From assembly GCA_024763075.1 (NCBI GenBank), contig JANTGF010000006.1, positions 1 through 64,000 on the forward strand: a stretch of 64,000 bases of DNA, read 5' to 3'. A program made the position numbers and the translations under genes. Under the pieces are notes generated by a model. It was not told the origin of the DNA, made no database searches, and saw only the letters and a list, made by a program, of their open reading frames with translations. Positions within the stretch are counted from its first letter, which is position 1. Each line of letters begins with the position of its first letter. This DNA comes from Bacteroidales bacterium (GTDB lineage Bacteria; Bacteroidota; Bacteroidia; Bacteroidales; VadinHA17). Shown piece by piece: positions 21,571 through 47,167 of this stretch.

Positions 21571-21993
21571 CTATTCAGGAGATGATAATTCTTCAACCTC
21601 AATAAATTTAAATGGCAGATTAACCATAGCACTGAAATCCAGGCCGCATTCCTTCATGTCCAGGTCATCTTCTTCGTAATACCAGTTTATTTCAATGTTT
21701 TTATTTCTGGATCTTACTTTTTCCAGAGTTTTAAATAATTTCAGCAGAACTTTTGAAGAGCTGGTATTAAAATATTCAAGCTGTACATCAATAGTTGTTT
21801 CTTCAGGTGGGGTGGTTTTAAATTCCTGAAGCCATTGAATAACCGGTTCAAAAAAAGCATTGTGGTTTTCGGGAATGGATTTGCCTGCAATCCGGAATTT
21901 GTTGCTTTCCGGAGAATATCTGATATCCGGGGTCTTTAATGAACCTCTGATGTTAAGCTCCGGAATTTTACTTTTCTGAGAGGATTTTTTCAC
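21571..21993 (-). CDS. SiaC-family (DUF1987) regulatory phosphoprotein
   Basis: 140 residues. It shows the family pattern TPDIRYSPESNKFRIAGKSIPENHNAFF, then WLQEF, YFNTSSSKVLLKLF and WYYEEDDLDMKECG. In Pseudomonas, SiaC is phosphorylated on a Thr by the SiaB kinase and dephosphorylated by the SiaA PP2C phosphatase to control a cyclase. The equivalent Thr is probably Thr77 in FNTSS. Neither a SiaB-like kinase nor a diguanylate cyclase is adjacent. A PP2C/SpoIIE protein lies 13 kb away and is only a possible partner. A palindrome ACATAC-ATTAC-GTATGT lies 19 bp upstream. Confidence 0.86.
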   Translation of the reverse strand: MKKSSQKSKIPELNIRGSLKTPDIRYSPESNKFRIAGKSIPENHNAFFEPVIQWLQEFKTTPPEETTIDVQLEYFNTSSSKVLLKLFKTLEKVRSRNKNIEINWYYEEDDLDMKECGLDFSAMVNLPFKFIEVEELSSPE

Positions 21994-22132: not shown

Positions 22133-22327
22133 AAAAAAAGGCCTTACATAGTGTCTCTTAGAAAACGCCAAATACTGCATTATTCTTGTTTTGAAAACGG
22201 TCATTTACAAAAGTAAACTCCCTGATTTTCAAAGATTCGAAAGCCTTGTCTTTGGCGTCTTCTAAGAAGCCACTCTAAAAGTTAAGAGTTTTCTTAGAAG
22301 CACTACATAAACCGTAAAGCCTTTTTT
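22133..22327. terminator. Terminator hairpin split by a miniature element
   Basis: The left arm 22133-22147 (A tract plus GGCCTTAC) and right arm 22314-22327 (GTAAAGCC plus T tract) are complementary except for one mismatch. Without the 153-bp insert and one copy of its 6-bp target duplication, they form a compact bidirectional terminator with a 7-nt loop. It would serve the POT transporter gene, which ends at 22344. Confidence 0.7.
22151..22303. mobile_element. 153-bp MITE-like element, copy 1
   Basis: The ends are imperfect inverted repeats: 16 nt at 22151-22166 and 22288-22303, 13 of 16 matching. The element is flanked on both sides by TACATA (22145-22150 and 22304-22309), a 6-bp target duplication. 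An internal 16-nt segment (22251-22266) can also pair with the left end (22157-22172; 15 of 16), so two folds compete. Copy 2 at 46960-47112 is the same length, and 8 mismatches are counted across 157 aligned bases. There is no coding capacity. The parent transposase is not in the window. Confidence 0.88.
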
Positions 22328-22343
22328 ATTCATTTATAAGATT

Positions 22344-24038
22344 TTATTCATCACTTGTAGCACTTTCCAGGGTTTTCATAATACTGAAAATGAAAATGGA
22401 TGAAAGCAGTAACATTACAACCAGCAATAAGAAAAACTGCCACATTTCCCATTTTTGCCAAAACGGGCCGATAAAGCCAGCCAGTAAATTTCCAATGGCA
22501 GTAGATCCAAACCAGGCACCCTGCATAAATCCTGAAAGGCTGGGGGGAGCTACTTTAGAAACAAAGGAGATGCCAATCGGGCTGTAAAACAGTTCTGAAA
22601 TAGTAAGACTAAAATATGTTGCGATCAGCCAATACGGTGTAACCCGCATGGAATCAGCGACTGCTCCTGGTACGAAATCCTTTGGTGAAACAAGTCCGGT
22701 GGCAACCAAAACCATTATTAAAAAACTCATGGCAGCCAGTATCAAACCAATACCAATTTTCCTTGGAGAACTTGGCTCAAGCCCCCTTTTATTCAGCGAT
22801 GTAAAAATTCCAATGATAATGGGAGTCAAAAAAACGATAAAAATCGGATTAAACTGTTGGAAGATCATTGGGTTTATGGGCATTTTATCTGAATAACCCT
22901 GAATCACATAATATGCAAGGGCTCCACCAACTATAATCATCGTAAGCCCGATCATTTTTAAAAGCTTTGTGTTCTTCTTGCCTATCAGGAAAACCAACCC
23001 CATGATAACAGCAATGATAGGCAAAAGAGCCCTCAGATCAAAAATAGCATAAGTTAAGGCACTTACTTCGGTGTAGGTGTAGTCCCTGGCAAAAATAGTA
23101 AGGGTAAACCCGTTTTGATGAAAAGCCATCCAGAAGAAAATATTTACAAGAAAAATAAGACCCAGGGCTACCATTCTTTTTTTATGTTGTTCTGGTGTCA
23201 GCGTAATAATATTTTTTGATTCGTCTTTTATCGCATGTTTGTGCATAATATCCACATGCTTGTATGTTTTTCTAAAACCTGCAAAGATCAACATCGAAAT
23301 AATGATACTAACAGCGGCAATACCGAAACCATAACTATAGGATTTACTTAATGTATCAATGTAATGATGACTGAAGTCTGTCAGGTTGGTAAACTGGTAT
23401 GATGAGCCTTCAATAATAGCAGATTTAGCCATTTCCAAATATTCACCGGTTTTTTCATAGGTACCACCATTACTTATTGCTTTTAAATAGTTGTGGGCAA
23501 ATGCAGGAATATTGGCATTGTAAAGCAGGTCGCCTTTTTTCATAATTATCTTGCTCATGGCCTGCGCAGCCGAAGGAGCAAAAAAGGCTCCGATATTAAT
23601 TCCCATGTAGAATATCCAGAAAGCAGAATCACGCAGTTTATCAAATTTTGCATCGTCATACAGCTTCCCAACTAGCGCCTGAAGGTTTCCTTTGAAAAAT
23701 CCAGTTCCAAAGGAAATAATAGTCAGAGCAATGTAAATAATAAGCTTGGTTGATCCGGGCTGGGCAAGAAGAAAATACCCGCCAATCATAAGGATTATAC
23801 CTAAAGTGATGGTTTTGCTGAAGCCGAAAAGCTTATCAGCAATGATTCCTCCCAACAGAGGGATGAAATAAATACCAAACAAAAAAGTTCCGTAAACACG
23901 TCCGGCTTCCTCGGCATTCATGCCAAATTTGGCCTGCAGAAATAAGATAAAAATGGCGAGCATGGTATAGTAGCCAAACCGCTCTCCCATATTTGCAAAT
24001 AAAAATACATACAGTCCTTTTGGGTGTCCTTTAAACAT
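22344..24038 (-). CDS. POT/PTR-family peptide MFS transporter
   Basis: 564 residues with about 14 hydrophobic segments. The N-terminal motif is NMGERFGYYTMLAIF, corresponding to the ExxERFxYY signature of proton-coupled oligopeptide transporters, but the first Glu is Asn16 here (Glu19 and Arg20 are kept). FGIYFIPLLGGIIAD and GTGFFKGNLQALVG are further POT motifs. A soluble stretch rich in Tyr/Ser lies near 160-225 and a cytoplasmic linker near 260-285. It probably imports di- or tripeptides, and the coupling mode is uncertain given the Asn. A -7-like box (minus strand, 24075-24082) lies 37 bp upstream. Confidence 0.9.
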   Translation of the reverse strand: MFKGHPKGLYVFLFANMGERFGYYTMLAIFILFLQAKFGMNAEEAGRVYGTFLFGIYFIPLLGGIIADKLFGFSKTITLGIILMIGGYFLLAQPGSTKLIIYIALTIISFGTGFFKGNLQALVGKLYDDAKFDKLRDSAFWIFYMGINIGAFFAPSAAQAMSKIIMKKGDLLYNANIPAFAHNYLKAISNGGTYEKTGEYLEMAKSAIIEGSSYQFTNLTDFSHHYIDTLSKSYSYGFGIAAVSIIISMLIFAGFRKTYKHVDIMHKHAIKDESKNIITLTPEQHKKRMVALGLIFLVNIFFWMAFHQNGFTLTIFARDYTYTEVSALTYAIFDLRALLPIIAVIMGLVFLIGKKNTKLLKMIGLTMIIVGGALAYYVIQGYSDKMPINPMIFQQFNPIFIVFLTPIIIGIFTSLNKRGLEPSSPRKIGIGLILAAMSFLIMVLVATGLVSPKDFVPGAVADSMRVTPYWLIATYFSLTISELFYSPIGISFVSKVAPPSLSGFMQGAWFGSTAIGNLLAGFIGPFWQKWEMWQFFLLLVVMLLLSSIFIFSIMKTLESATSDE

Positions 24039-46912: not shown

Positions 46913-46959
46913 GTTATTTTTCATTGATAATTTTCACCTGAAACAGGGATGTGTATTTA

Positions 46960-47112
46960 GTGTCTCTTAGAAAACGCCAAATACTGCGTTATTCTCGTTT
47001 TGAAAACGGTCATTTACAAAAATAAACTCCCTGGTTTTCAAAGCTTCGAAAGCCTTGTCTTTGGCGTCTTCTAAGAAGCCACTTGAAAAATTAAGAGTTT
47101 TCTTAGAAGCAC
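46960..47112. mobile_element. 153-bp MITE-like element, copy 2
   Basis: Same length and termini as copy 1 (inverted ends 46960-46975 and 47097-47112), with 8 mismatches over 157 aligned bases. It is flanked by TATTTA on both sides (46954-46959 and 47113-47118), a different 6-bp duplication that again fits TAnnTA. It lies upstream of the RSH gene and next to repeat B copy 2. No terminator is disrupted here. Confidence 0.88.
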
Positions 47113-47167
47113 TATTTATTTGCAGTACGAAGAGGTATTTAATACCCGGTTCAGAATGAATATTTAA

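What the first reader, a model, noticed from the sequence alone, without database searches (positions are those of the whole stretch)
22145..22309. Two-copy 153-bp miniature element with 6-bp TAnnTA target duplications
Seen directly: 22151-22303 and 46960-47112 are equal in length, without indels, and differ at 8 of 157 aligned bases. Each is bounded by its own 6-bp direct repeat (TACATA in one, TATTTA in the other). The ends are inverted repeats, 13 of 16 matching. Different flanking duplications show two separate insertions, so this is a transposed unit and not a segment duplication. No transposase gene is in the window, which suggests a non-autonomous MITE moved by a partner elsewhere.
Basis: seen in the sequence. 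Interest (0 to 1): 0.68.

Follow-up and report, generated by a model that had tools for sequence, protein, structure and literature searches.

The report
Non-autonomous mobile repeat (ISNCY-type MITE)
The 153-base repeat is a real miniature mobile element with about 40 copies or fragments in this genome; it carries no gene, has the ends of a known type of insertion sequence (ISNCY) found complete only in related genomes, and belongs to a family spread across the phylum whose folded core is conserved by paired changes.

Summary
Copies at 22151-22303 and 46960-47112 differ at 8 of 153 bases. They are 2 of 40 BLAST matches in the 4.59-Mb assembly, about 24 of them full length. Nearly all intact copies have identical 6-bp TAnnTA flanks. 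An orthologous locus lacks the element in two relatives, and removing it with one flank copy restores an intrinsic terminator.

The MITE reading holds, and I found the partner class. A 1,844-bp element in another family of the order (L293) has family-1 ends (17/18 and 16/18 bases), a TATTTA duplication and a 495-aa transposase of NCBIfam NF033593 (ISNCY). Other ISNCY elements with TAnnTA duplications carry the sister end type. No such transposase was found in the assembly.

Two features were not in the finding. The element has a third, internal copy of its end that pairs with the left end in a long hairpin. This core recurs across Bacteroidota in MITEs with different ends; 94% of pairs are kept, 27 of 43 with double-sided changes, and it matches no Rfam family. 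It is absent from the autonomous elements tested. Within this genome's copies pairing shows no constraint, so selection is more likely on spreading lineages than on host function. That step is inference.

The parts
22145..22150 (.). left target duplication TACATA
22151..22303 (+). MITE copy 1 (153 bp, family 1)
22151..22173 (+). left end L (GTGTCTCTTAGAAAACGCCAAAT); the most conserved part among the genomic copies
22174..22247 (-). hairpin core conserved across Bacteroidota MITEs (strand given reads CAAGGCTTTCGAA...AATAATGCAG)
22248..22273 (-). internal inverted copy of the left end (L'), pairs with L
22286..22303 (-). right end R (GTGCTTCTAAGAAAACTC), 17/18 identical to the right end of the ISNCY element in L293
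22304..22309 (.). right target duplication TACATA
22140..22147 (.). one arm (GGCCTTAC) of the intrinsic terminator split by the insertion
   Evidence: the joined site folds with z -3.5
22314..22321 (.). other arm (GTAAAGCC) of the split terminator
46954..46959 (.). left target duplication TATTTA of copy 2
46960..47112 (+). MITE copy 2 (153 bp, family 1)
47057..47082 (-). internal inverted end copy L' of copy 2
47113..47118 (.). right target duplication TATTTA of copy 2
22344..24038 (-). flanking gene (564 aa, transporter-like); its neighbourhood gives the empty site in relatives
21571..21993 (-). flanking gene (140 aa) on the other side; syntenic in G025 and G026

Best explanation
It is a type II MITE: a non-coding element cut and inserted in trans by a DDE transposase of the ISNCY class modelled by NCBIfam NF033593. 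The transposase recognises the roughly 18-bp ends (GTG-YYTCTWAGAAAAC), inserts at TAnnTA sites, almost always between genes, and leaves a 6-bp duplication. Its interior is not a remnant of the IS. It is a separate hairpin core, built with a third inverted copy of the left end, that this MITE lineage shares with sister families across Bacteroidota. SHOWN: mobile-element anatomy, duplications, an empty site, ends shared with ISNCY elements, absence of an ISNCY transposase from the assembly, and a covarying core. INFERRED: that ISNCY transposase acts on it in trans (no assay), that the partner was lost or lies in unassembled sequence, and that the hairpin is kept because it helps the element spread rather than because the host uses it.
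For: Forty matches, about 24 full length, with matched TAnnTA flanks at nearly all intact copies. Across all related elements found, 111 of 113 perfectly duplicated flanks are TAnnTA. The syntenic interval in G025 and G026 has no element, and joining the window flanks with one TACATA restores a terminator hairpin. A 1,844-bp IS with family-1 ends, TATTTA duplication and NF033593 transposase (377 bits, cut-off 325) exists in G153. Further IS of that class with TAnnTA duplications: L115 (2,004 bp), L230 (1,639 bp, a genome that also holds such MITEs) and L234 (1,716 bp). Removing L115 and one TAATTA restores the reading frame of the IS30-type gene it sits in (read directly). Core: 94.2% of cells paired against 36-43% for slid partners, 27 of 43 pairs with double-sided changes, 0 of 500 shuffles as high. 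None of the autonomous elements searched matches the core model at E <= 0.01. None of the 37 copies examined clearly interrupts an annotated-size ORF, L016 being the one ambiguous case.
Against: No copy of the partner transposase is in the assembly, so trans-mobilisation in this host is indirect. The closest IS with family-1 ends lies in another family of the order. Three intact copies (L008, L009, L026) have unmatched flanks, probably through recombination or misassembly, not shown. Whether TA belongs to the ends (2-bp duplication nn) or to the target (6-bp duplication) cannot be told from empty sites. Within family-1 copies, paired and unpaired sites vary equally (0.33 and 0.34 singletons per site; 39 broken against 1 compensated pair), which gives no direct sign that the hairpin is needed.
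Confidence: 0.92

Rival explanations
1. The repeat is a functional structured RNA or cis-regulatory element (leader, attenuator or sRNA) spread by transposition and kept for its host function.
For: Strong covariation and a stable fold (z about -5.5 on the minus strand); a mild excess of G-U over A-C on one strand (82 against 39 cells).
Against: No Rfam match; no orientation bias to co-directional genes (6 sense, 11 antisense) and all gene arrangements occur; paired sites are not conserved among resident copies; the strand bias is not significant on an unbiased pair set or per pair (16 against 9 cells; 19 against 10 pairs, p 0.14).
Confidence: 0.08
2. The compensatory changes come from template switching within the palindrome (hairpin correction) rather than from selection.
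For: Base-paired changes between families are mostly Watson-Crick to Watson-Crick with few wobble intermediates.
Against: Among 24 young copies only 1 compensated against 39 broken pairs, so correction is at least not frequent; conserved unpaired motifs are not explained by it.
Confidence: 0.25
3. Segmental or recombinational duplication, not transposition.
For: Some copies have unmatched flanks or are truncated.
Against: Different TAnnTA duplication at each intact copy, unrelated flanks, empty orthologous site.
Confidence: 0.01
4. The element is moved by a transposase other than the ISNCY class, for example one of the three DDE_Tnp_1 proteins in this genome.
For: Those are the DDE_Tnp_1 transposases present in the assembly.
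Against: An inverted-repeat search around those three genes found no ends like GTG-YYTCTWAGAAAAC flanked by TAnnTA, whereas ISNCY elements have both features.
Confidence: 0.04

Closest known systems
ISNCY insertion sequences of the NCBIfam NF033593 type (ISNCY_1)
   Same: Ends GTG-YYTCTWAGAAAAC (L293) or GWGTYTGTCYATAAAGTC (L115, L230) and TAnnTA 6-bp duplications, as in the MITEs
   Different: The MITE has no gene, and its hairpin core and internal third end are absent from the autonomous elements searched
Type II prokaryotic MITEs (review PMC10969869)
   Same: Short, intergenic, TIRs and TSDs, sequence shared with the IS restricted to the ends, stem-loop fold
   Different: Interior conserved with covariation across subfamilies that use different ends; internal inverted copy of one end
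ERIC and similar palindromic repeats (from general knowledge)
   Same: About 120-150 bp, imperfect palindrome, intergenic, many copies
   Different: ERIC duplicates TA only and has no known sequence relation; not compared here by alignment
Porphyromonas gingivalis MITE239, MITE464, BrickBuilt (PMC4596501)
   Same: MITEs of the same phylum sharing ends with an IS
   Different: Ends match IS5-family elements (GAGACC..., ACGTCA...), different or inconsistent duplications

Membership tests
MITE (non-autonomous transposon) | terminal inverted repeats | tested here: met
   13 of 16 bases
MITE (non-autonomous transposon) | target-site duplications differing between copies | tested here: met
MITE (non-autonomous transposon) | no transposase gene inside, multiple dispersed copies | tested here: met
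   153 bp, too short for a transposase; 40 matches
MITE (non-autonomous transposon) | empty orthologous site | tested here: met
   G025 and G026, (one locus)
MITE (non-autonomous transposon) | mobilised in trans by an autonomous partner | not testable with these tools
   partner class inferred from ends and duplications
ISNCY (NF033593)-related MITE | ends shared with an NF033593 element | tested here: met
   L293: 17/18 and 16/18 bases, transposase 377 bits over cut-off 325
ISNCY (NF033593)-related MITE | same duplication rule TAnnTA | tested here: met
   L115, L230, L234, L293
ISNCY (NF033593)-related MITE | partner present in the same genome | tested here: not met
   no match to the L115 protein, and to NF033593 only a 27-position fragment at E 0.0097 in the assembly
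ISDol1 subgroup of ISNCY | transposase falls in the ISDol1 subgroup | not tested
   no ISfinder data here; the NF033593 model name does not say which subgroup
Type I MITE (internal deletion of an IS) | interior homologous to the IS | tested here: not met
   core model R1 finds nothing in L115, L230, L234, L293 at E <= 0.01
Known Rfam RNA family | match to a covariance model | tested here: not met

The most novel reading that the evidence does not exclude
The hairpin core is a distinct, selected structural module of a phylum-wide MITE lineage that has switched between transposase end types while keeping the module: a DNA or RNA structure, including an internal copy of the end, that is required for or enhances mobilisation.
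Probability: 0.35. Interest if true: 0.7.

Novelty: new variant of a known kind. Interest (0 to 1): 0.48.

Why it matters
The finding gives many Bacteroidota intergenic repeats a name, a target rule (TAnnTA) and a testable partner class (ISNCY, for which I found no described MITEs in the papers searched). The covarying core shared by MITEs with different ends raises a concrete question: does a structure inside a gene-less element matter for its spread? In practice, these repeats end contigs in this assembly and could be mistaken for structured RNA genes in comparative screens.

Tried and rejected
Three DDE_Tnp_1 transposases of the own genome were examined as partners; an inverted-repeat scan showed no matching ends. 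A viral-contig scan with family-1 ends hit one conserved stretch in six contigs with no second end or duplication, taken as a chance match. A protein scan of viral contigs with the L115 transposase found no relative. A preference for terminators or hairpins as insertion sites was tested on 45 joined sites against 76 control sites and rejected (p 0.64); the window copy in a terminator is a single case. A strand bias pointing to RNA was tested twice and is inconclusive. A gene-orientation bias was not found. Rfam gave nothing. A search of plasmids with the window region gave nothing. Not resolved: whether the 48-bp and 17-bp forms move or arise by deletion in place.

Full report
OBSERVATION. Both places were read directly. 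The elements are 153 bp, equal in length, differ at 8 positions and are flanked by TACATA/TACATA and TATTTA/TATTTA. A search of the window's own assembly (4.59 Mb, 197 contigs) with the first copy gave 40 matches, about 24 of them full length at 92-100% identity, plus three diverged full-length copies at 73-81%; at least eleven are cut by contig ends. Aligned with their flanks, nearly all intact copies have the same 6 bases on both sides, always of the form TAnnTA with different middle bases. Exceptions are L008, L009 and L026 (unmatched), and L006, L013 and L016 (one base changed).

SHORT FORMS. Scanning for the ends also found nine 48-bp elements (GTGTCTCTTAGAAGCCACTTGAAAAATTAAGAGTTTTCTTAGAAGCAC and close variants) and two 17-bp ones (GTGTCTCTTAGAAGCAC), nearly all with their own TAnnTA duplication. 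The sequence TCTWAGAA occurs in the left end, the internal end copy and the right end, so each short form is explained by a deletion between such repeats at the base of the hairpin. Whether the short forms move or were deleted in place is not resolved.

EMPTY SITE. In G025 and G026 the two genes flanking the first window copy are neighbours, as in the window (about 79% and 62% protein identity), and the interval holds no element. Joining the window flanks with one copy of TACATA (a computed join) restores an intrinsic terminator (GGCTTTAC GGTTTAT GTAAGGCC TTTTTTT on the minus strand, one G-T pair in the stem), and both relatives have a terminator-like hairpin at that position. The element thus landed inside a terminator between two co-directional genes. 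This is one case: 45 joined sites show no more folding than control TAnnTA sites.

PARTNER. A second MITE group in the same genome and in G024 uses the ends GWGTYTGTCYATAAAGTC, again with TAnnTA. Most paired ends are 43-220 bp apart. One, L115 (an Ignavibacteria MAG), is 2,004 bp long with TAATTA on both sides and encodes a 443-aa protein that matches NF033593, ISNCY family transposase (379 bits, cut-off 325). It interrupts an IS30-type gene, and removing it with one TAATTA restores the frame (...N K L I R Q Y I P K...; read). A search for NF033593 in 117 genomes of the family rang in 35, not in G000 or G022. Where ends could be recognised they again flank TAnnTA: L230 in G024 (1,639 bp) and L234 in G092 (1,716 bp, end GTGTCTGCAAGAAAA, as in the G022 MITEs). 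A pattern search over 393 genomes of the order found family-1 ends in 30. In G153 two of them are 1,844 bp apart with TATTTA on both sides: GTGTCTCTAAGAAAACTC and GTGCCTCTAAGAAAACTC, 16/18 and 17/18 identical to the window element's ends. They enclose a 495-aa NF033593 transposase (377 bits). This is the best candidate for the partner type. The own assembly has no such transposase; three other DDE_Tnp_1 transposases there have no matching ends.

TARGET RULE. Over all elements collected, 111 of 113 perfectly matching 6-base flanks are TAnnTA. The set was partly collected with patterns that include TA or TANNTA, so part of it is favoured by construction; the flanks of the copies found by BLAST alone are not. 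Empty sites cannot tell whether the inner TA belongs to the ends.

CORE. The element contains, at 22248-22273, an inverted copy of its left end. The left end and this copy form the base of a long hairpin. Elements from many Bacteroidota MAGs with either end type share this design and the motifs CAAGGCTTKCGAA, GGAGTTTAC, GTAAATGACTG and GAGCGTAACGCAG. An unconstrained alignment of 23 elements gives 43 pairs. Of the cells, 94.2% form standard pairs against 36-43% when partners are slid; 27 pairs have double-sided changes; the covariation score is 0.487 against 0.05-0.10 slid and 0.197 shuffled. A covariance model finds the core in dozens of further elements in Bacteroidales, Vicingaceae, Saprospiraceae and others, and in none of the autonomous elements searched. 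Rfam has no match.

WHAT KEEPS THE CORE. Among 24 copies in this genome (5.6% mean pairwise difference) singleton changes are as common at paired as at unpaired sites (0.33 and 0.34 per site), with 39 broken, 10 one-sided and 1 compensated pair cells. The left end is much more conserved (0.005 changes per site per copy against 0.03 overall). So resident copies show no sign of being maintained by the host, nor of frequent hairpin correction. The reading I favour is that the structure matters over longer times in the lineages that keep transposing. This is inference; repair by template switching is a serious rival. A test for RNA through G-U against A-C asymmetry is inconclusive. Gene orientation shows no bias.

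COMPARISON AND NOVELTY. By the definitions in PMC10969869 this is a type II MITE. The library searched held no paper that I could see describing ISNCY MITEs (of two papers with both terms, one was opened and assigns its MITE to ISL3), and the TAnnTA term found nothing relevant; the library omits most subscription journals. P. gingivalis MITEs are tied to IS5 ends (PMC4596501). I rate it a new variant of a known kind: the kind is known; the conserved covarying core and internal third end shared across end types are the unusual part. Placement within ISNCY (ISDol1 subgroup) is from memory and was not tested.

Noticed in passing
L122 832-951, L159, L164, L179, L217: Treponema and other Spirochaete MITEs with the sister end type have each end doubled as a short terminal hairpin; one 53-bp form (L165) looks like an internal deletion of the 120-bp type.
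   Followed up: partly
L086, L109, L116, L123, L190, L224: A second, related core class (CAAGGCGTGNGA...CCGCAGTCCCGA...) sits between the same ends.
   Followed up: partly
L238, L239: Weaker NF033593 relatives in the same bacterial family also have TAnnTA flanks but other ends (GGGTYTGCTGWTAAAGTA; GTCGACCCTTAA), so the duplication rule may be wider than this group.
   Followed up: no
contigs C4, C10, C63, C84, C89, C94, C110, C120, C138, C144, C168 of G000: Contig ends fall inside family-1 copies, so these repeats fragment the assembly.
   Followed up: no
L052, L062, L063, L098: Elements of different end types sit head to tail sharing one TAnnTA, as if the duplication of one served as target for the next.
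   Followed up: partly
window 22151-22173 and equivalents: The left end varies about six times less among copies than the rest of the element (3 changes against about 17 expected), more conserved than the right end.
   Followed up: partly
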